Assembly: GCA_021375695.1 (NCBI GenBank)
Contig: JAEPKX010000015.1
Location: forward strand, 1 to 38,512
DNA from: Candidatus Igneacidithiobacillus taupoensis
GTDB taxonomy: Bacteria; Pseudomonadota; Gammaproteobacteria; Acidithiobacillales; Acidithiobacillaceae
Direction of reading: 5' to 3'
Length of the DNA: 38,512 bases
Positions within the stretch are counted from its first letter, which is position 1. Every line of letters starts with the position of its first letter. The notes below the pieces were generated by a model that was not told the DNA's origin, did not search any database, and saw only the letters and a program-made list of their open reading frames with translations. A program made the translations under genes and the position numbers. Of this stretch, positions 4,879 to 31,625 are shown one piece after another.

Positions 4879-7737
4879 TCAAGATTTGAGGTTGACGGGT
4901 TCATGGGTGTGATATCGCAACACGTCCGGTGCCGGAGCGCTCCCCGGTAGCGGTTTCATGGTGGGGAAGGTCGGCCATGTTCCTTCTTCACCGGGAGCAG
5001 CAGGGGTGATTTTGACCATCAGATCATACCATGCTGCCTGACCAGTAATGGGATCGGAGTTGGTAAGACGCCTCTCCCCTTGTTTCGGAGGCAAGAGTTC
5101 TGAGATCAAATGGTTCATCAAGAAACCACGGGTAGCTTCGGCGGCGTCCGGCTTCAGGCCCCAGGCGCCCGACTGCTTGCCGATGGCATTCCAGGTCCAT
5201 ACCGTATCCTCTTGACAGCCCTCGATCAGCTTCACCTGAACGCGGATCTTGCCATTGTGGCTCTCTACCCAGACCCAGCTTTTGTCTGCAATGCCCATTT
5301 GCTCTGCCCGCTTACGGTTCATATACAAATAATTCTGGGCAATGATCTGCCGCAGCCAGGCATTCTGGCTATCCCAGGAGTGATACATCATCATTGGGCG
5401 CTGATTAACGGCATAGAAGGGATATTCCTTCTTGTCAATACGCTGCTGCTCCAAGGGTTCATAGTAGTCAGGCAGCGGATCGAAATAAGTAGCCAAGCGC
5501 TCCCGATCCACTGGATCTTTGGGACAGGGACCATCGTACAAGCCCATTCCTGCCAAACGAAAGCGCTGGAATGTCTCGGAATAGAGCTCAATAATGATGG
5601 GATCCGCCGTAGGATTGAAGCCAATACGCTGGGCCAATTCCAGGTATTCCTTGTTGGCAAAGCGATAAAAGCGCATGGACTTGGGCAGGTGATATTGGAA
5701 GAATCCCTGGTTTTCGATGTAGTGTTCCCATTGATTGGGATTGGGCTCACCACGTAAATGACTTTGTCCATCCTTGCCGCGCCAGCCGGCCAGGAAACCG
5801 ATCCCCGGAGCACGCTCGAAGTTGGCAATGAAATCCTTGTAGCTACTGAACCTGGGTGTACCGTCTTCTTTGGTAAAGGCAGGAAATTTCAGTTTTCCGG
5901 CAATTTCTACCATCACATCCTGCCAGGGCCGCACGTTGCGATCGGGTTTCAGGATGGGGTGACGGATGGAATCGCAGATTGCATCTGGTTCGGAAATGGG
6001 TCGGTCCAACAATGAGATGGAATCATAGCGTTCCAGGTAGGTGGTATCTGGAAGAATGAGATCGCCAAAATTGACCATTTCCGAGTGAAATGCGTCGACG
6101 ACGACCAAAAAGGGTATTTTGTACTCGCCGTTCTCATCTTTGGCCTTGAGCATCTCCTGCACGTTGGCCGTATTCATGGTGGAATTCCAACTCATGTTGG
6201 CCATGAAGAAGATCAGGGTATCAATACCATAAGGGTCCTTGTTAACGGCATTGGTGATGACCATATGCATTAGACCATGGTTGGCAATGGGCGCTTCCCA
6301 GGAGTATGCCTTGTCGATCCGCTTGGGTCGGCCCTCTTCGTCGATTACCAGATCCTCAGGGGCGGTGGGAAACCCCAGGGGCAGGGACGAAAGGGGGGTG
6401 TTGGGAGCGCTATGCTGGGCTGGTTTGTTGGGCGGCGGTACCGGCTTGGGGTAAGGTGCTTTGGCACGAAAACCACCTGGGCAATCGATGGTACCCAAGA
6501 GAATTTGTAGCAAATGGATGGCGCGTGCCGCCTGCAATCCATTGGAATGGGCAGAAATGCCGCGCATGGCATGCATGGATACGGGACGGCCAATAAATCT
6601 GTCGTGCTTGCGTCCAGCCCAATCTGTCCATTCCACCGCAATTTCGATGCTCTCCTGGAAGGCTACATGGGCCATCTCCAAGGCCAGGCGCTCAATGGTT
6701 TCTGCAGGTATCCCCGTAATTTTGCTGGCGTTGACCGGACTGTACCGTTCATCCAAATACCGATCGGCCAAAATCGACATAATGGTTCGCACCGGCCGAC
6801 CATCCGGAGTTTGATATTCGCCAAAGAGGGCGGGCTTCACGCCCGGCTGCATTCCATTGACGAAAGCTTCCTGTTCCAGGTCCCAGACCAAGGGGTGGCC
6901 TTCCCCATCCCGCCAGAGCAGACCATCACCCTTTTGACCCGGGGTCTGGACCACCAGGAAGGGAGCATTGGTATAGCGGAGCAGAAAATCCCAATCGAAC
7001 TGCTCGTTGGTCAAGAGGACATGGACCATGGAAAGAGCAAACATGCCATCGGTACCCGGACGAATGGGGACCCACTCATCGGCAATGGCCTGATAACCGG
7101 TGCGGGCCGGGTTGATACCCACGAACTTGCCACCGTTGCGCTTGAGTTTTTCCAAGCCGATCTTCATGGGATTGGAGGAATGATCTTCGGCTACGCCCCA
7201 GAGCATGAAATACTTGGTACGATCCCAATCCGGGTCGCCAAACTCCCAGAAAGCATGTCCCAGCATGTAGAGACCCGCCGTGGCCATGTTGACGGAGCAA
7301 AAGCCACCATGGGCCGACCAGTTGAGGGTCCCAAATTGCTGCGCCCAAAGACCCGTTAGCGCTTGCATTTGATCGCGACCCGTAAAATAGGCGAGTTTGT
7401 TGGGGTCTGTGGCTCGGATATGGGCAAGGCGCTCAGTCAAAATCTGGATGGCTTCGTCCCAGGAAATCTCCTCGAACTCGCCAGAACCCCGTTCGGCGCC
7501 GGGCTTACGGCGGAGAGGATTACGAAGCTTGGCAGGGGAATACTGCTTCATGATCCCGGCAGAGCCTTTGGCGCAGAGAACCCCCTGATTGATGGGGTGA
7601 TTGCGATTACCCTGAATGAATCGCACCTTGTTGTCTTCTAACGTGACCTTGATTCCACATCGGCAGGCGCACATGTAGCAGGTACTGTACTTGATCTCTT
7701 GCTTCTTGTGGTCCTCGAACTCCATGACCGTAGCCAT
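4879..7737 (-). CDS. soeA: SoeA-type molybdopterin oxidoreductase (probable sulfite-oxidising, cytoplasmic)
   Basis: The 952-residue protein belongs to the DMSO reductase superfamily. An N-terminal 4Fe-4S motif is visible (C20-x2-C23-x3-C27-x27-C55). C147 in HGGFCSVNM sits where related enzymes supply the molybdenum ligand. The C-terminal part has the dinucleotide-binding domain. There is no twin-arginine signal, so the protein should stay in the cytoplasm, unlike PsrA or PhsA. Together with a DmsB-like and a DmsC-like subunit this fits SoeABC, which oxidises cytoplasmic sulfite. The linkage to sHdr genes supports this. A polysulfide or thiosulfate reductase remains possible. The start at 7737 follows a GAGGGG; an upstream in-frame ATG at 7773 lacks such a site. 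Confidence 0.85.
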   Translation of the reverse strand: MATVMEFEDHKKQEIKYSTCYMCACRCGIKVTLEDNKVRFIQGNRNHPINQGVLCAKGSAGIMKQYSPAKLRNPLRRKPGAERGSGEFEEISWDEAIQILTERLAHIRATDPNKLAYFTGRDQMQALTGLWAQQFGTLNWSAHGGFCSVNMATAGLYMLGHAFWEFGDPDWDRTKYFMLWGVAEDHSSNPMKIGLEKLKRNGGKFVGINPARTGYQAIADEWVPIRPGTDGMFALSMVHVLLTNEQFDWDFLLRYTNAPFLVVQTPGQKGDGLLWRDGEGHPLVWDLEQEAFVNGMQPGVKPALFGEYQTPDGRPVRTIMSILADRYLDERYSPVNASKITGIPAETIERLALEMAHVAFQESIEIAVEWTDWAGRKHDRFIGRPVSMHAMRGISAHSNGLQAARAIHLLQILLGTIDCPGGFRAKAPYPKPVPPPNKPAQHSAPNTPLSSLPLGFPTAPEDLVIDEEGRPKRIDKAYSWEAPIANHGLMHMVITNAVNKDPYGIDTLIFFMANMSWNSTMNTANVQEMLKAKDENGEYKIPFLVVVDAFHSEMVNFGDLILPDTTYLERYDSISLLDRPISEPDAICDSIRHPILKPDRNVRPWQDVMVEIAGKLKFPAFTKEDGTPRFSSYKDFIANFERAPGIGFLAGWRGKDGQSHLRGEPNPNQWEHYIENQGFFQYHLPKSMRFYRFANKEYLELAQRIGFNPTADPIIIELYSETFQRFRLAGMGLYDGPCPKDPVDRERLATYFDPLPDYYEPLEQQRIDKKEYPFYAVNQRPMMMYHSWDSQNAWLRQIIAQNYLYMNRKRAEQMGIADKSWVWVESHNGKIRVQVKLIEGCQEDTVWTWNAIGKQSGAWGLKPDAAEATRGFLMNHLISELLPPKQGERRLTNSDPITGQAAWYDLMVKITPAAPGEEGTWPTFPTMKPLPGSAPAPDVLRYHTHEPVNLKS

Positions 7738-24884: not shown

Positions 24885-25679
24885 GTGCTTGCCGTTGACC
24901 TCTTGGTGATCGCCTCGGCCCTGCTGCAGCCCCCAGGTGTTCTTTTGATCCTGCTTGGTGTGGGACTACTCCTGGACTGGTGGGCTGCCTGGCATTGGCT
25001 GGGTAGAAGCCTGGCGGGTATCGCCCTGCTGATCCTTTATGCCAGCAGCACCCCTTTGGGATGCTATGCCCTGCTGGCTCCCCTGGAAAATCGTTATCCA
25101 CCCCTGACCCAGCCCTGGAACGGTCCCAACCGACCCGAGGCCATTGTTGTTTTGGGTGGTGGTGAGGTCATGGATCCTGGGCAAAGCAGTCCGGAAATGG
25201 CCAATGCTCGCACCTTGATGCGATTACAGGCGGCAGCCGCGTTGGCCAAGGCAACAGATTTGCCGGTCATTCCCAGTGGCGGGGCCCCCCGCTATGGAGC
25301 CCCAAGCGAAGCGGCCACCATGGCCAAGCTCCTGCGAAGAAGCTTTGGATTGAAAAACCCCATCTGGTGCGAAGGAAAATCCTACAATACTGCTGCCAAC
25401 GCCAAAGATAGCGCTTTGCTTTTGTCCCAACGTGGAATCCAGCGCATTTATCTGGTGACTTCTGCCCTGCACATGCCCCGGGCAATGGCCTGGTTTACCC
25501 ACGAAGGTGTACAAGCAGTCCCTGTGCCTTGTGACTATCGTCTGGCCAGCAAACCCTCCAAAAGTCGCTGGCAATCCTGGCTTCCTCGGGCAATTTATGA
25601 AGAAATCAGTAGCGAAGTCATCCACGAGTATCTGGGACTCCTCTGGTTCAGGATACAAACCCATCAACTGGATTTTTGA
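24885..25679 (+). CDS. ElyC/YdcF-like membrane protein (DUF218)
   Basis: The 264-residue protein has two N-terminal hydrophobic segments (about 4-30 and 42-60) followed by a DUF218 domain: AIVVLGGGE, LPVIPSGGAP, EGKSYNTAANAKDSA and VTSALHMPRAMAWF. ElyC in E. coli supports envelope and peptidoglycan precursor integrity. That role here is inferred. It begins with GTG nine bases after lipA, with only a poor ribosome binding site. Its 3' end overlaps the convergent L,D-transpeptidase gene by 16 bases. Confidence 0.88.
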   Translation: MLAVDLLVIASALLQPPGVLLILLGVGLLLDWWAAWHWLGRSLAGIALLILYASSTPLGCYALLAPLENRYPPLTQPWNGPNRPEAIVVLGGGEVMDPGQSSPEMANARTLMRLQAAAALAKATDLPVIPSGGAPRYGAPSEAATMAKLLRRSFGLKNPIWCEGKSYNTAANAKDSALLLSQRGIQRIYLVTSALHMPRAMAWFTHEGVQAVPVPCDYRLASKPSKSRWQSWLPRAIYEEISSEVIHEYLGLLWFRIQTHQLDF

Positions 25680-26758
25680 TCGGGCAGATAGACCTTGACA
25701 TGGATCTGATCTTTGTTGGCCTGACTCGCCAAGGGTAGTGGTGGTGGCACCGCCGCATCATTGGCACCTGGACCATAGGGGGCATAGGCGTAGGGTTTGG
25801 CTGGCAGCGCCCTGGCAAGGGTAGCGTAGCTTGGGGATCCCTTGCTGATGGGCAAGGCTACGGTGTTGTGTTCGGCAACTATCCGCCGCACCCGAGCCCA
25901 GTCAATGGGCTCCTGGATATGGTTGGCGGCCATGAAATTCTTGATGCTGACTACCGCCCGCTGCAAATCATCAGGACCGTGTTTATGGTAGGCATGCAAT
26001 GGTTTATAGGACTGCAGATAAACCTGTCCGTTGCGCTCCCCCACCATGTTGGGCTCATCAATGATTCGTACTGGCGTTCCTACCGGAACCATCGGAAAAA
26101 GTTGGGCAATATTTTCCGGGTACATCTGGAAGCAACCCTGACTGGCGCGCATTCCCACACCCCATGGGTGATAGGTACCATGGATGAAAATACCGGAAAG
26201 CCCAGTCTCCATGGCCAATTCGCCCATGGGGTTCTCGGCCCCAGGGGGCCAGTACCAGGGAATGTCCATGTGGAACTTCTTTTCAAACCACGCATGGATA
26301 TTTCTGGGAACATTCCACGCCGGCATCTTGAACTTCTGGATGATGCTGGTGGTGGTCAGGCTTTCTTTCCAGCCCGGCAAAAAGACCCCTACGGGATAGG
26401 TAAAGACCACATGCTGACCAGCGGGAAAGTAATACAGTCGACGGGCTGGAATGTTGACGATGATCCCCGTCCAAGGCTTGGGGGGTAACACGTATTCTGC
26501 CGGGATAATCACCTTGGTGGCCTGACCTGGAAGCCAGGGATTGACGCCAGGGTTGGCCCGGGTAATCTGGTTATAACCTACGTCATAGAAACGTCCGATA
26601 TCCAGCAGCGTGTCGTCCCGGTGGCTAGTGACTGCCAGCAGGTTGCCTACCACATTACCATGCGCAGGCAAGGGGAAAACCGTACCCTGGGCCGAGGAAC
26701 TGAGCAGAAGGATTCCACCGATGAACAACAAAATTGCATTGAAAGAGATTCGCGGCAT
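25664..26758 (-). CDS. L,D-transpeptidase (YkuD family) with LysM-like domain
   Basis: The 364-residue exported protein has a signal peptide (about 1-25), a LysM-like segment (about 42-86: DDTLLDIGRFYDVGYNQI), a YkuD catalytic domain (about 97-235) and a proline- and alanine-rich tail. The active site includes H193 in HGTYHPWG and C209 in ASQGCFQM. The residue after CF is Q211 where most relatives have arginine (SHGCIRM/VRL). It should cross-link peptidoglycan or attach proteins in the periplasm. The ATG at 26758 is preceded by GAGGAAAAG; an upstream in-frame start at 26788 lacks a site. Confidence 0.92.
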   Translation of the reverse strand: MPRISFNAILLFIGGILLLSSSAQGTVFPLPAHGNVVGNLLAVTSHRDDTLLDIGRFYDVGYNQITRANPGVNPWLPGQATKVIIPAEYVLPPKPWTGIIVNIPARRLYYFPAGQHVVFTYPVGVFLPGWKESLTTTSIIQKFKMPAWNVPRNIHAWFEKKFHMDIPWYWPPGAENPMGELAMETGLSGIFIHGTYHPWGVGMRASQGCFQMYPENIAQLFPMVPVGTPVRIIDEPNMVGERNGQVYLQSYKPLHAYHKHGPDDLQRAVVSIKNFMAANHIQEPIDWARVRRIVAEHNTVALPISKGSPSYATLARALPAKPYAYAPYGPGANDAAVPPPLPLASQANKDQIHVKVYLPDQKSS

Positions 26759-26849
26759 CTTTTCCTCGAATAGTGACCGGGCAAACAAAAACTCGGCCTT
26801 GCATCCTGTATCGATTCAAAGCGTAATTGTACCGAAAATGGAGAGCATA

Positions 26850-27278
26850 ATGGAATCACCTTTTTTACTGCGAATACGAGAAACTCTGGATGGCGAGCGA
26901 CGGATCAGTGAAACCACCCGATCAGATTTCCAGGCCCTGGACCATCTTGTTGCGAACATCGCCCAGGATCTGCAAGTGGACTATGATGGTCCAGAGGTTG
27001 GCATTGGGACCAATTCCGGTTTACACCGGTTACGCGTAGCCGAGCATCACTGGACAGGTGCCCAGCGTGGCTGGGGAGTCGCGGTATGTTCTTATGCCCA
27101 GAGCAATCATCCCCGCAGTGAATGGCGGCTTGCAAAGGTCAGTCGGGAACGCCTTCCACTGGTACTCCATGCCCTGCCCAGATTTTTTCTGGGATATGTC
27201 CAGGTTGCCCGGTCGCAGCGCGAGGATCGGGCCAGCCTTCGACGACTCCAGCAAATTGCCAAATTGTTGCAGCGTTGA
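26850..27278 (+). CDS. Hypothetical protein upstream of the GTPase module
   Basis: The 142-residue soluble protein is not recognised. It has an acidic first half (about 1-60, helical LDGERRISETTRSDFQALDHLVANIAQDLQ in character), a central part rich in histidine and tryptophan (about 62-95) and a basic helical C-terminus (RSQREDRASLRRLQQIAKLL-like). It has no signal or membrane helix. GGAG six bases before ATG 26850 decides the start, although the frame is open upstream. It is 72 bases from the FimV-like gene, in the same direction, and may belong to that operon. Confidence 0.75.
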   Translation: MESPFLLRIRETLDGERRISETTRSDFQALDHLVANIAQDLQVDYDGPEVGIGTNSGLHRLRVAEHHWTGAQRGWGVAVCSYAQSNHPRSEWRLAKVSRERLPLVLHALPRFFLGYVQVARSQREDRASLRRLQQIAKLLQR

Positions 27279-27350: not shown

Positions 27351-28865
27351 ATGTCCATTCCCAGCAGCAGTCTCATCCTCATTGGACTGGCAGTGTTCTT
27401 ACTGCTGGGTGCCATCGGCTGGAAGCTTTACCAGCAGCGCAGGGCTCCCTCCCAGCGGATGACACCCAAGTCAAATGCTGCGCCCCATGGGAATATTGCG
27501 GAGGTTCCAGCAGCACCGACACTCCCCCCAGCAGCCCCTGTCGTACCAGCAGGCAACGGTGCAGGAGACTTTGCCGTCGAAGAAGTCTCCATTCTTGATG
27601 AAGTAGAGATTTATTTGGCCTATGGACACAAGGAGCAAGCAGTTACCACCCTCCGCTGGTATGTGGATCATCATCCCGGGGATTTTCCCCAACGGGAGCG
27701 CTTGCGAAAGCTCTACCTTGCACTCAATGATCTCGATGGACTGGCAGAACAGCTGGATGCAGATCTCACCCTGGGAGCCATTACCCCAGAAAGTGCGCGT
27801 ACCCTGGTCCTGGAGGCATTGGATCAGGATCCAGGCCATCTTGCTTTGCGGGTACTTGCAGAAGACCGCCTGCACTTTAGCCTCGACGATCTGGAAGCGG
27901 AACTTCGCAGGCGTCGACCCATACACACAGGGCCATCAGAACCCGAGACCGAGCAGCTAGCCCTATCTGGCTTGCGGGCAGAATTGCAGCAGGTCATCGT
28001 ACATCCCGAGCCCATCGACCTGAGCAGTCTCCCGTCCCTGGAACCGTTTCCCCGGGAAAAAAGTGCAGCGGCGGTGGTGGCAGAAGAGTTCGAGGGAAAA
28101 GCCTTGGTACGCGGCAACTCTCCCCTGTCGCCGCTGAGCGATGAAGAACAACAGGTGGTTTCTACCCTAGTCTCCGTACCGCGCTTGACCAAACTGCTCT
28201 TGCGCAGTGGACAAGAGCGTGCTGCAGAAGAACTACTGCAACGACAGATCATCCTGCATCCCAAGCAACTGCACTTTCATGTACTACTGCTGCAGTTGCT
28301 TTTTCATCGGCAAGACCTCAATGCCTATGGGCTCGCCCTGCTCCGTTTGTATATTGCTCTTTGGGGTTTGGGTAAGGCTCTTCGCCAGCGACTGCTGGAG
28401 GTCGGCAAGCATTTGGGAGTCCATCCACTTTGGACAGAGTTGGCAGCTTGTGAAGGCGCTGAAGAAAAACTCGCCCCCTTGGCAGAGCGTTATGGACTAT
28501 ATCTTCCCCTTGCAGCCATTCCTTTGAGTAACCCGCCCTTAGTAGAAGAGCGATTGCGGCGGGATGGCGAATTGAGCGAAGCAAAGAGCGATGATCAGGT
28601 TTTTCGGGAGTTCAATCTCTTACTTGATTACGGTCAAGTCGAGGAAGCTGTGGATTTATTGGAAAATGCCGCCCTCAGCACACCACATCAGCGAAGCTAT
28701 TTTGCCCCTTTACTGGAGATGTATGAAAGGATGCAGGCCCGGGATCGTTTTACTCGCTTCAGCAAAAAAATTCTTGCCGGCACCCAGTTGCCCGATGAGA
28801 GCATCTTGCGGCAGATGTACCATCTATCAGAACGTTTGCAAGAACCAAAGTCGGTCCGAGCCTAG
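27351..28865 (+). CDS. FimV/HubP-like membrane protein with TPR-type repeats
   Basis: The 504-residue protein has an N-terminal membrane helix (about 9-25, LILIGLAVFLLLGAIGW), a proline-rich linker (about 45-75), a FimV-like TPR unit (DEVEIYLAYGHKEQAVTTLR, about 83-140), an acidic middle, and a second helical-repeat region (about 270-480) with DEVxxxY/QVEEAVDLLENAAL character. FimV/HubP proteins organise type IV pili and polar proteins. No LysM domain is visible, so this is a reduced relative. It leads a set that includes a small GTPase and roadblock proteins. Start 27351 is uncertain; GTG 27330 is an alternative. Confidence 0.75.
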   Translation: MSIPSSSLILIGLAVFLLLGAIGWKLYQQRRAPSQRMTPKSNAAPHGNIAEVPAAPTLPPAAPVVPAGNGAGDFAVEEVSILDEVEIYLAYGHKEQAVTTLRWYVDHHPGDFPQRERLRKLYLALNDLDGLAEQLDADLTLGAITPESARTLVLEALDQDPGHLALRVLAEDRLHFSLDDLEAELRRRRPIHTGPSEPETEQLALSGLRAELQQVIVHPEPIDLSSLPSLEPFPREKSAAAVVAEEFEGKALVRGNSPLSPLSDEEQQVVSTLVSVPRLTKLLLRSGQERAAEELLQRQIILHPKQLHFHVLLLQLLFHRQDLNAYGLALLRLYIALWGLGKALRQRLLEVGKHLGVHPLWTELAACEGAEEKLAPLAERYGLYLPLAAIPLSNPPLVEERLRRDGELSEAKSDDQVFREFNLLLDYGQVEEAVDLLENAALSTPHQRSYFAPLLEMYERMQARDRFTRFSKKILAGTQLPDESILRQMYHLSERLQEPKSVRA

Positions 28866-28877
28866 GGAGGAGACAGC

Positions 28878-29999
28878 ATGAATGAAAAGCCCAACGCCGT
28901 CGCCACATCCCTCGTAGTGCAAAGCATTGGTATGGATGCACGCAAGGAAGCCGTATTTCGCATGGCCTTCAAGATGAATCGAAGGCACGCCTATCGCTTG
29001 CTCGAAGACGGTGAAAAAGAAAAAGTCGATCTCGCCATTGCCGACCTCGACTCTCCCGAGGGCCTGGCCCAGGCGCGCACCTTTGCCAGGGAACAGCCGC
29101 ACATTCCTTTGCTCGGAACCAGTACCACTCCCGAGCAGTATCCAGAATTTCGGGTGCTTCGCAAGCCCATTCGCATGGAAACCCTTTTCCCGGCCCTTGC
29201 CCAACTCCTCCAGCAGCCTGCAAATGCTCCTGCATCCCTCCCTCCTGTCGAAACGGCGAGCCCTCCCCCCCCAAAACCAGAGGCTTCCCAGCCGTCCACC
29301 AAGGCAGCAGATGCCGATCTTCGGGTCAGCCTATCCCGGCGTTGGAACCCGGAACAGGTGGAATATTTTGACCCGGACCAGGGGATTCTTGCCCTCGTCC
29401 AACGGGCGGTGCGGGATCAAATCCCCACCCAGATTCTCAATCCCGAGGGAAAACTCCTCTGGCGTATCCTCCCTGGGGACGGCTTGGTCGAAAGCTATGG
29501 GAGCTCCACGGAAGAAAATAAAGCCCTGACTGATCCGGAGCGGCTCCAGGTCCGGGTTGACAGCTCCCAGGCAAACGGCCAGCCAAAGCACCAGCAGGGG
29601 CTACAGGAGTTCCTTTGGTCCTTCTCTGCCGCCGTCGCCCGGGGACGAATGAGTCGTCGCATTCCCCTCCACCATCCGGTAAAGCTCCAGCGCTGGCCCA
29701 ACCTCACGCGTTTGCGTCCATTACCGGAAGCCTTACGGCTCTCGGCATTTCTGGCTCGCTCACCCGCCTCACCGCTACTCACCATCCGGATGCTGCAAGT
29801 TGAACCTGCAGATCTTTTTAATTTTCTTGCGGCAAGCGATGGTATTGGCATTCTGCAATATGGTCCTGCAGCTACGAGCACTATCCCTTCGAATCAAACG
29901 ACCCCCGCTACCAGCGAGGCGTCGACCAGAACTGTAGAGCCACCTTCACCAAAACGTGGGCTGCTGGGCCGACTATTGGCAAAGATCGCGGGCTTGTAA
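28878..29999 (+). CDS. Two-domain protein with degenerate receiver-like N-terminus
   Basis: The 373-residue cytoplasmic protein begins with a receiver-like fold (about 10-112): VDLAIADLDSPEG carries an aspartate at the phosphorylation position and VLRKPIRMETLF the conserved lysine, but the acidic pair after strand 1 is missing (VVQSIGMDA), so phosphorylation is doubtful. After a proline-rich linker (about 115-140) comes an unrecognised domain (about 145-330, RWNPEQVEYFDPDQGILAL). The C-terminus is basic (PKRGLLGRLLAKIAGL) and might contact membrane. A strong GGGAGGAG precedes the start. It lies 12 bases after the FimV-like gene and 32 before the GTPase gene. Confidence 0.72.
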   Translation: MNEKPNAVATSLVVQSIGMDARKEAVFRMAFKMNRRHAYRLLEDGEKEKVDLAIADLDSPEGLAQARTFAREQPHIPLLGTSTTPEQYPEFRVLRKPIRMETLFPALAQLLQQPANAPASLPPVETASPPPPKPEASQPSTKAADADLRVSLSRRWNPEQVEYFDPDQGILALVQRAVRDQIPTQILNPEGKLLWRILPGDGLVESYGSSTEENKALTDPERLQVRVDSSQANGQPKHQQGLQEFLWSFSAAVARGRMSRRIPLHHPVKLQRWPNLTRLRPLPEALRLSAFLARSPASPLLTIRMLQVEPADLFNFLAASDGIGILQYGPAATSTIPSNQTTPATSEASTRTVEPPSPKRGLLGRLLAKIAGL

Positions 30000-30031
30000 G
30001 GAGAAAAGGCTTAGAACCCCAAGGAGGTCGT

Positions 30032-30598
30032 ATGAGGGAAGACAACAAAATTGTATTTACAGGCCCCGTGGGGGCAGGCAAAACCTCGGCCATTGCCGTC
30101 CTCTCCGACGTGCCGATCATCTCCACCGATGCCAAGGCATCGGACATGACGATCAACCGCAAAGGCCACACCACCGTCGCCATGGACTATGGCATCCTGC
30201 ATTTGGGAGAAAAGAGCAAGGTCCACCTCTATGGGACCCCTGGCCAGGAACGTTTTGATTTTATGTGGGATATCTTGACTACGGGCGGTCTGGGTCTGGT
30301 ACTCATGCTCGATAACACCCGTCCCAACCCAAAAAAAGATATGCATTTCTTTCTTCATGCCTTTAAAAATTATATCAGCGATGTTCCGGTAGTCATCGGA
30401 ATCAGCAAAACCGATCTTGCCCCGCGGCCCACCACCACGGAATATGCCGAAATGTTTGCCGAGGTGAGCCAGGACCTCCAGATGCTCAATCCGGTTCCGC
30501 CCATCTTTGAAGTCGATGGCCGCAACAAGGAAGATATCAAAAATCTGGTCATGGCATTGCTCTTTTCCATTGATCCCGGGATCGGGGCTGCGGTATGA
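30032..30598 (+). CDS. Small Ras-like GTPase (COG2229/MglA-like)
   Basis: The 188-residue GTPase has P-loop G11-PVGAGK-T18, switch II LYGTPGQERFDFMW (68-79) with the Gly-Thr-Pro-Gly form typical of COG2229 and related to MglA, and base-specificity motif S125-KTD128. Such enzymes act as bacterial polarity or signalling switches and are controlled by roadblock proteins, two of which are encoded immediately downstream. AAGGAGG eight bases before the start is strong. Its stop overlaps the next start (ATGA). Confidence 0.9.
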   Translation: MREDNKIVFTGPVGAGKTSAIAVLSDVPIISTDAKASDMTINRKGHTTVAMDYGILHLGEKSKVHLYGTPGQERFDFMWDILTTGGLGLVLMLDNTRPNPKKDMHFFLHAFKNYISDVPVVIGISKTDLAPRPTTTEYAEMFAEVSQDLQMLNPVPPIFEVDGRNKEDIKNLVMALLFSIDPGIGAAV

Positions 30599-31233
30599 GC
30601 ATACAACTGGTCAGCGCTTCCACTCCCCTCTATGCCGAACTGAGTCCGGCAGGGGCCTTTTATGTGAGTTCTGGCCCGGAGTTGGAAGGCAATCGCACGG
30701 TATTACTGGGAATTCTCCGCGAGGGTGCGCAAGCACCATTTTCGGTTACCACTGCCTTGCGCTGGACCCGCCTGGACAGTGAAGAAGATGCCCTTCGTAG
30801 TATCCTTCGCCTGCAGCGATTAGGACTCATCCGTGGCAACGAACAGCCTCGTCCCGCCCCCACCGAGCGGCTAGAAGACATTCTCCCCCCTTTACTTGCT
30901 CAATTATCCGATAGAAAGCAGGCCCTGTTGGCCGATGAAAATGGATTCTATCTAGCCACTGCCGGATTTCTGCATGAATCAGCCGAAGAATTGGCAGGAC
31001 TCTCTGCCGATCTACTGAGCCTACAAAATCGACACGGGCGCCTGTTACGAAACAATCTGCGGGTGCATAGCGAAAGCTGGGCCTTGGTGGACCCCGCAGG
31101 CCAATCGGAATTGGGCTTTTGGCCCCTTTTCATTGGTCCACAGCGATTCATGTTGATCATTGGCGGTACCCCGTTGCTGCAAAACCAGTCTTTTGTCTCA
31201 TTGATCCAGGTCCTTGATCAGCGCTATCGCTGA
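30595..31233 (+). CDS. Winged-helix plus roadblock-like protein
   Basis: The 212-residue protein appears to have an N-terminal winged-helix-like part (about 25-80, SEEDALRSILRLQRLGLIRG) and a C-terminal roadblock/LC7-like part (about 105-210: KQALLADENGFYLATAGF, ESAEELAGLSADLLSL, RFMLIIGGTPLL). Roadblock proteins bind small GTPases as activators or adaptors. The ATGA overlap with the GTPase gene implies coupled translation and a direct partnership. The domain calls are from pattern only. Confidence 0.65.
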   Translation: MSIQLVSASTPLYAELSPAGAFYVSSGPELEGNRTVLLGILREGAQAPFSVTTALRWTRLDSEEDALRSILRLQRLGLIRGNEQPRPAPTERLEDILPPLLAQLSDRKQALLADENGFYLATAGFLHESAEELAGLSADLLSLQNRHGRLLRNNLRVHSESWALVDPAGQSELGFWPLFIGPQRFMLIIGGTPLLQNQSFVSLIQVLDQRYR

Positions 31234-31262
31234 ATCATCACTTTTTTTGAAGGAGCCACCAG

Positions 31263-31625
31263 ATGCGCGAAGAAATGTTAAAATCAATACTCAGTGACCT
31301 GAACGGGTCCTCTGCCGACATCGAGGCGTCGGCGGTGATTTCTACCGATGGCCTTACCATCGCCTCTTTGCTGGCCGCTAACATGGACGAGGACCGGGTG
31401 GGGGCCATGGCTGCGGCCATGCTCTCCTTGGGCGATCGGACGGCAGCGGAATTGGCGCGAGGGGAACTCGAACAGGTAATGATCAAGGGTGATGGTGGAT
31501 ATGTGTTGCTGATTCACGCTGGGCACGACGCCGTCCTGACCGTCATTGCCCGGAAAGAAGCCAAACTCGGCCTGGTCTTCCTGGATGCCAAGCGGGCTGC
31601 CCAAGGGATTGCCGAGCTGCTCTGA
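31263..31625 (+). CDS. Roadblock/LC7 protein (MglB-like)
   Basis: The 120-residue protein is a complete roadblock/LC7 domain: IEASAVISTDGLTIAS, AAAMLSLGDRTAAELARGELEQVMIKGDGGYVLLI in parts, and DAVLTVIARKEAKLGLVFLD. Homologues such as MglB are GTPase-activating partners of MglA-like GTPases. It has a strong AAGGAG upstream and lies 29 bases after the previous gene. It ends the module: the next gene is glyQ. Confidence 0.9.
   Translation: MREEMLKSILSDLNGSSADIEASAVISTDGLTIASLLAANMDEDRVGAMAAAMLSLGDRTAAELARGELEQVMIKGDGGYVLLIHAGHDAVLTVIARKEAKLGLVFLDAKRAAQGIAELL

What the first reader, a model, noticed from the sequence alone, without database searches (positions are those of the whole stretch)
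27351..31625. Undescribed five-gene module: FimV-like TPR, degenerate receiver, COG2229 GTPase and two roadblock proteins
Seen: five closely spaced genes (gaps 12, 32, -4 and 29 bases) encode a single-helix TPR protein resembling FimV/HubP, a protein with a receiver-like domain lacking the acidic pair, a Ras-like GTPase (GPVGAGKT, SKTD), a winged-helix/roadblock-like protein and a roadblock/LC7 protein. Known: MglA GTPase and MglB roadblock control polarity and motility in Myxococcus; FimV/HubP organises poles and type IV pili. Inferred: this is a membrane-tied GTPase switch, perhaps for pole definition or surface attachment to sulfur or minerals. The two different roadblock-like partners and the degenerate receiver have no counterpart I know.
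Basis: partly seen in the sequence, partly recalled or inferred. Interest (0 to 1): 0.8.

Follow-up and report, generated by a model that had tools for sequence, protein, structure and literature searches.

The report
Bacterial Ras-like GTPase polarity operon
A five-gene operon in a sulfur-oxidising Acidithiobacillus-type bacterium encodes a small Ras-like switch protein and its helpers; it is a member of the 'Group 3' MglA systems catalogued in 2014 but hardly tested, here shown to carry a TPR protein as a standing partner and probably to steer surface pili or cell polarity.

Summary
In detail: genes, order and spacing are as described. 'Undescribed' is wrong: GTPase, receiver-plus-winged-helix protein and two MglB-type roadblock proteins make up the 'Group 3' MglA system of beta/gamma-proteobacteria (Wuichet & Sogaard-Andersen 2014, PMC4316618).

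The GTPase has that group's signature: GTPGQ in 81 of 81 sequences, Thr in place of the arginine finger, variable G4 lysine, D-x-R in G5. Of 80 loci fetched by GTPase alone, 76 hold all five genes in order, in Neisseria, Snodgrassella, Methylomonas, Thiothrix, Sphaerotilus and others.

AlphaFold models support a receiver domain (VIA Z 11.7) and the roadblock topology in both small proteins. The receiver lacks the acidic pair but keeps the phospho-acceptor-position Asp and Lys-Pro.

New here, as far as I could search: the TPR protein as fifth core gene; a conserved amphipathic C-terminal helix on the receiver protein; two subtypes (long membrane TPR, or short TPR plus PAS and PhnD-like genes); and a second GTPase+TPR pair in this genome.

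Best reading: an MglA/MglB-type switch at the membrane, with the TPR protein as effector scaffold, controlling type IV pili or polarity. Output and complex are inferred, not shown.

The parts
26850..27278 (+). Conserved unknown protein (142 aa), upstream gene, probably same transcription unit
   Evidence: Relatives at the same place in Acidithiobacillia only: 7 ORF hits within the fetched loci, several loci being too short to show it, and in L022; no Pfam match. Not part of the widespread five-gene core.
27351..28865 (+). TPR protein (504 aa): one N-terminal membrane helix (about residues 7-26), short N-terminus outside, TPR repeats inside
   Evidence: TPR_14 2.5e-7, TPR_19 2.2e-6; orthologue precedes the receiver gene in 76 of 80 loci; paralogue beside the second GTPase.
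28878..29999 (+). Receiver-like protein (373 aa): pseudo-receiver 9-114, linker, C-terminal alpha/beta plus winged-helix-like domain about 160-335, C-terminal amphipathic helix 362-372
   Evidence: Profile search of the PDB gives mostly receiver domains, E 0.0095-0.9; AlphaFold pLDDT 84.7; VIA Z 11.7 to receivers over 13-114; D56, D58, K96, P97 conserved; C-terminal helix motif in 73 of 78.
30032..30598 (+). MglA-family (Group 3 type) small GTPase, 188 aa
   Evidence: ATP_bind_1 3.9e-15, Ras 2.9e-7; GTPGQ 81/81, TT at G2, D-x-R at G5.
30595..31233 (+). Winged-helix-like N-terminus plus roadblock/LC7 domain, 212 aa; second MglB-type protein
   Evidence: Robl_LC7 in 27 of 36 relatives, best 1.5e-5; best PDB sequence match CvnB5, E 0.0046; model has roadblock topology a-bb-a-bbb-a after a three-helix plus strand N-terminal domain.
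31263..31625 (+). MglB-type roadblock/LC7 protein, 120 aa
   Evidence: Robl_LC7 6.1e-16; PDB profile matches to Asgard roadblock 7f8m 3.4e-30, CvnB5 1.8e-12, MglB 0.0021; VIA Z 16.5 to Thermus MglB; invariant D29-G30.

Best explanation
The five genes encode one signalling unit, a Group 3 MglA system. The GTPase cycles between GTP and GDP. The 120-aa roadblock protein is its MglB-type regulator (most likely GAP, possibly also exchange factor), alone or paired with the roadblock domain of the 212-aa protein. The pseudo-receiver protein sits at the inner membrane through its C-terminal amphipathic helix and is an adaptor rather than a phosphorylated response regulator. The TPR protein, anchored by one membrane helix in this lineage, is the effector or scaffold that the GTP-bound GTPase engages, as SgmX does for MglA. 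The output is most likely placement or activity of type IV pili, i.e. cell polarity and surface attachment. Shown here: domain content, conserved order, GTPase motifs, folds. Inferred: GAP activity, membrane binding, TPR as effector, pili as output.
For: Gene set conserved in order in 76 of 80 loci chosen by GTPase only. GTPase motifs match Group 3 of PMC4316618, and the described neighbours match. The set includes Snodgrassella alvi (L060), whose mglA is assigned to Group 3 and where an orphan mglB mutation alters type IV pilus-type motility (PMC11112851). GTPase plus TPR pairing recurs at a second, independent locus. Parallel to MglA-SgmX(TPR)-FrzS(pseudo-receiver) in pilus control (PMC11580455). 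33 of 34 genomes with the 212-aa protein have PilM and the exception has PilT. Bactofilin gene adjacent in 9 loci. C-terminal amphipathic cationic helix in 73 of 78 receiver proteins.
Against: No pilus gene is next to the module. FliG is enriched as well (29 of 34, against 152 of 276 overall), so the co-occurrence does not single out pili, and the p-values ignore phylogeny. The joined winged-helix-roadblock plus roadblock model has pTM 0.59, so pairing of the two is not settled. GTPase-partner contacts were not modelled. No experiment on this operon was found for Acidithiobacillus.
Confidence: 0.55

Rival explanations
1. The system regulates transcription: the receiver/winged-helix protein is a DNA-binding output and the GTPase tells it when to act. 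This is the suggestion of PMC4316618 for Group 3.
For: Winged-helix-like C-terminal segment: helices 285-294, 299-306, 310-322 then a strand; isolated weak winged-helix Pfam hits; the 2014 authors' Phyre2 result.
Against: The same protein ends in a conserved cationic amphipathic helix of membrane-binding type, and the operon holds a TPR protein with a membrane helix, which the 2014 account does not mention. Winged helices are also common protein-protein modules.
Confidence: 0.2
2. A general sensory G-protein system like the actinobacterial conservons, with output other than pili: flagella, redox response or metabolism. The 212-aa protein would be the exchange factor, as MfpC (CvnC type) is for MfpB.
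For: Type B operons continue with a PAS protein and a PhnD-like binding protein (33 and 34 loci), which look like sensors; FliG co-occurrence; CvnB-type GAP and CvnC-type GEF roles (PMC13343842).
Against: No histidine kinase in the module; PAS and PhnD genes are absent from the type A operons including this one; Neisseria and Snodgrassella are, from general knowledge, not flagellated.
Confidence: 0.2
3. The genes are neighbours without a common function.
For: None beyond the lack of experiments.
Against: Order kept across beta/gamma-proteobacterial lineages in loci not selected for it; median gaps 3, 18, 2 and 49.5 bases.
Confidence: 0.02

Closest known systems
Group 3 MglA system (Wuichet & Sogaard-Andersen 2014, PMC4316618)
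   Same: GTPase with GTPGQ and no arginine finger; receiver+winged-helix protein; two MglB homologues; beta/gamma-proteobacteria including Neisseria.
   Different: The TPR protein is not mentioned there; this genome keeps the G4 lysine (SKTD), which many relatives lack; the amphipathic helix and the type A/B split are additions.
mgl operon of Snodgrassella (PMC11112851)
   Same: Group 3 mglA with two coupled mglB genes; S. alvi locus L060 has the same five-gene order.
   Different: That paper studies an orphan third mglB and does not mention TPR or receiver genes. The window genome has only one Robl_LC7 hit over the cut-off.
MglA-MglB-SgmX-FrzS of Myxococcus xanthus (Group 1)
   Same: Ras-like GTPase, roadblock regulator, TPR effector, pseudo-receiver adaptor acting on type IV pili.
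   Different: Group 1 has TVPGQ and an intrinsic arginine finger; the GTPase lies apart from several partners there; here all are in one operon. SgmX and this TPR protein share only TPR repeats (26 bits against a cut-off of 1800).
Conservons / actinobacterial G-protein systems (Group 2)
   Same: GTPGQ-type GTPase and a CvnB-like roadblock protein in one operon.
   Different: No histidine kinase; no CvnC assignment for the 212-aa protein.
FimV/HubP polar landmark proteins
   Same: One membrane helix and related TPR repeats (profile against the genome's own FimV, E 4e-16).
   Different: No FimV core or LysM region; the true FimV is a separate gene (G000:C58, E 7.9e-21).
Ragulator / Rag GTPase complexes
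   Same: Roadblock proteins, several kinds, serving small GTPases; the folds match.
   Different: Eukaryotic; heterodimer formation here is untested.

Membership tests
MglA Group 3 GTPase | GTPGQ in G3 | tested here: met
   81 of 81 aligned sequences including the window.
MglA Group 3 GTPase | Thr instead of the arginine finger in G2 | tested here: met
   TTVA(M/L)DYG-type G2 throughout.
MglA Group 3 GTPase | G4 often lacks the lysine; G5 DAR | tested here: met
   In the family G4 is TQMD/TRMD in many and D-x-R in G5 in all. The window itself has SKTD and DGR, so it keeps the lysine.
MglA Group 3 system | Next to a receiver+winged-helix protein and one or two MglB homologues | tested here: met
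MglA Group 3 system | Falls in the Group 3 clade of a tree with Groups 1-5 | not tested
   No tree with reference Groups 1, 2, 4 and 5 was built; the link rests on shared operon and 58-59% identity to Snodgrassella, whose mglA is called Group 3 in PMC11112851.
MglA Group 1 (M. xanthus type) | TVPGQ and arginine finger | tested here: not met
   GTPGQ and Thr.
Conservon (Group 2) | Histidine kinase CvnA in the operon | tested here: not met
   None among the flanking ORFs examined.
FimV/HubP | FimV core / periplasmic LysM region | tested here: not met
   No hit to TIGR03505 in the TPR protein at E up to 1; separate FimV gene found.
FimV/HubP | FimV C-terminal TPR domain | tested here: not met
   TIGR03504 absent from the window protein's list; one of 24 relatives at 0.0065 only.
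Response-regulator receiver | Receiver fold | tested here: met
   VIA Z 11.7, rmsd 2.2, 100 residues; Foldseek best E 1.3e-3. Helix 2 is missing and helix 4 very short in the model.
Response-regulator receiver | Acidic pair for Mg2+ | tested here: not met
   Residues after strand 1 read Q-S in the window (LVVQSIGMDARK); D56 and K96-P97 are kept.
Roadblock/LC7 (31263-31625) | Robl_LC7 profile over the cut-off | tested here: met
   58.4 bits against 23.
Roadblock/LC7 (30595-31233) | Robl_LC7 profile over the cut-off | tested here: not met
   18.1 bits against 23 for the window protein. 27 of 36 relatives match at E up to 0.1 and the predicted topology fits, so it works like one; formal profile membership is below cut-off.

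The most novel reading that the evidence does not exclude
Group 3 MglA systems are complete, one-operon versions of the Myxococcus leading-pole module: GTPase, pseudo-receiver adaptor on a MinD-like membrane helix, TPR effector, and a heterodimer of two different roadblock proteins (Ragulator-like) as GAP or GEF. They would control pilus polarity in many beta/gamma-proteobacteria including Neisseria, in a membrane-anchored (A) and a PAS/PhnD-sensing (B) form.
Probability: 0.3. Interest if true: 0.65.

Novelty: new member of a known kind. Interest (0 to 1): 0.42.

Why it matters
How piliated beta/gamma-proteobacteria such as Neisseria decide where and when to use pili is poorly understood, and few of them are thought of as having an MglA-type polarity switch. 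A conserved operon that brings GTPase, two roadblock proteins, a pseudo-receiver and a TPR protein together names the partners to test at once, in laboratory species. For acidithiobacilli it offers a handle on attachment to sulfur and minerals.

Tried and rejected
Considered and rejected: chance clustering (order kept in 76 of 80 unselected loci); TPR protein as FimV (no core domain, genuine FimV elsewhere); membership in MglA Group 1 or in conservons (motifs, no kinase). Profile-profile comparison of the two roadblock families gave no significant match (probability 0.6%), so their kinship rests on Pfam and topology. Pfam on 42 receiver-protein relatives found no consistent family; its C-terminal domain was not modelled alone, so its fold is open. 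In the structure search of the joined model only the second roadblock domain (222-345) was really tested. The joined chain was a natural reading of locus L039 with stops read as Gly; pTM 0.59 leaves pairing open. Pilus co-occurrence was not specific: flagellar FliG is enriched too. Papers on this operon in Acidithiobacillus: none found. Promoter and terminator scan no better than shuffles.
Full report
What is there. The window is contig C50 of a 1.73-Mb, 98% complete genome whose closest named matches are Acidithiobacillus. Five ORFs lie head to tail on the + strand at 27351-31625 with gaps of 12, 32, -4 and 29 bases, followed by glyQ and glyS. A sixth ORF upstream (26850-27278) has relatives at the same place in Acidithiobacillia only and no Pfam match.

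What the proteins are. The GTPase matches ATP_bind_1 and Ras, the last protein matches Robl_LC7 strongly, the fourth weakly (18.1 bits against a cut-off of 23), the first matches TPR repeats, the second matches nothing in Pfam. Relatives settle the weak cases: 27 of 36 fourth-gene proteins hit Robl_LC7, with the conservon protein CvnB5 as best PDB match. A profile of 42 second-gene proteins finds 23 PDB chains, nearly all receiver domains, and its AlphaFold model (pLDDT 84.7) matches receivers at VIA Z 11.7 over residues 13-114. Helix 2 is missing and helix 4 very short in that model. The acidic pair is replaced, but D56, D58 and K96-P97 are conserved.

Roadblock folds. A chain read through from the fourth to the fifth gene of locus L039 (stops read as Gly, 21 paired sequences) gave a model in which both proteins have helix-two strands-helix-three strands-helix, with a three-helix-plus-strand domain before the first. 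The fifth protein matches MglB and Ragulator subunits (VIA Z 16.5 to Thermus MglB). pTM was 0.59, so I draw no conclusion about how the two pair.

Distribution. tblastn finds the same genes in order in the Acidithiobacillaceae loci taken, and in full in two genomes of a second family of the order. A scan of 84,980 species with the GTPase alignment alone returned 80 best loci of at least 579 relatives. Of these, 76 have TPR, receiver, GTPase, winged-helix-roadblock and roadblock genes in that order; three others lack genes on short contigs, one is rearranged. They include Neisseria, Snodgrassella, Chromobacterium, Methylomonas, Thiothrix, Sphaerotilus and Halothiobacillus.

What it is. Wuichet and Sogaard-Andersen (PMC4316618) described MglA Group 3: almost only beta/gamma-proteobacteria, GTPGQ in G3, Thr for the arginine finger, often no G4 lysine, DAR in G5, and a neighbourhood of one unknown protein (receiver-like N-terminus, winged-helix C-terminus) with one or two MglB homologues. 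Across 81 sequences GTPGQ is invariant, G2 carries TT, G4 varies (TQMD, TKMD, SKTD) and G5 is D-x-R. The window itself keeps the lysine. Snodgrassella mglA is assigned to Group 3 (PMC11112851), and its locus here is L060. I therefore file the module as a Group 3 MglA system; a tree with all five groups was not built.

What is added. First, the TPR protein: the 2014 text has no mention of TPR, yet it is a fifth core gene. Second, its pairing with the GTPase recurs: the same genome has a second GTPase with a shorter TPR protein and a lipoprotein-like gene near a cobalamin-independent methionine synthase-like gene, the two TPR proteins aligning at E 3e-19. Third, the receiver protein ends in a cationic amphipathic helix such as RGLLGRLLAKIAGL in 73 of 78 relatives; from general knowledge this resembles the MinD membrane anchor. 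Fourth, two subtypes split cleanly in a tree of three joined proteins: A, long TPR protein with a membrane helix (Acidithiobacillia, Neisseriales, Hydrogenophilus-like); B, short TPR protein without that helix. In most B loci the operon continues with a PAS protein and a PhnD-like protein (33 and 34 loci). A bactofilin gene lies next to the TPR gene in 9 loci. Fifth, in one relative the GTPase is fused to a Ser/Thr kinase (L024).

How it may work. In Myxococcus, MglA-GTP acts on pili with the TPR protein SgmX; the pseudo-receiver protein FrzS binds SgmX (PMC11580455). In mycobacteria the CvnB-type MfpD is a GAP and the CvnC-type MfpC probably a GEF (PMC13343842). By analogy the 120-aa roadblock protein is the GAP, the 212-aa one a paired subunit or exchange factor, the pseudo-receiver a membrane adaptor and the TPR protein the effector. 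These steps are inferred. Of 34 class-wide genomes with the 212-aa protein (E < 1e-20) 33 have PilM at E < 1e-20 against 213 of 276 overall (p about 0.001, phylogeny ignored), and the exception has PilT. FliG is also enriched (29 of 34; p about 8e-5). Pili are the commoner denominator, since five of these genomes lack FliG, but this is weak evidence.

The FimV comparison. The TPR protein has no FimV core match at E up to 1; the genome's FimV is at C58. Their TPR repeats are related (profile E 4e-16). So 'FimV-like' is right for the repeats and wrong for the protein.

Verdict. Real, conserved and interesting, but a member of a known, little-tested class.

Noticed in passing
window 26850-27278 (+): Conserved 142-aa protein of unknown family upstream of the TPR gene, found in Acidithiobacillia loci only.
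   Followed up: partly
window 25664-26788 (-): LdtE-like L,D-transpeptidase (YkuD) divergent from the operon; a YkuD gene also lies upstream of the module in 8 Neisseria loci, beyond an RNA methyltransferase-like gene in the one examined.
   Followed up: partly
L029 (G000:C5) 5551-7563 (-): Second GTPase with a shorter TPR protein and a DUF3568 lipoprotein-like gene, no roadblock gene, near a methionine synthase-like gene; kept in other Acidithiobacillaceae.
   Followed up: partly
L024 1596-3086 (+): Ser/Thr protein kinase fused to the Group 3-type GTPase in one relative (Pkinase 8.4e-38).
   Followed up: partly
L087 7618-8853, L073, L080 and about 30 other loci: PAS-domain protein and PhnD-like binding protein follow the roadblock gene in type B operons.
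   Followed up: yes
L070, L086, L088 and six Sphaerotilus-group loci (L078, L098, L101, L102, L104, L112): Bactofilin gene beside the TPR gene.
   Followed up: partly
L039 5544-9000: Tandem of roadblock and PhnD-like genes: two roadblock copies and three PhnD-like copies.
   Followed up: no
L027 5413-6809: Another GTPase in a Thermithiobacillaceae-like relative, preceded by a protein that looks like a PATAN/DUF4388 domain by eye but has no Pfam hit.
   Followed up: no
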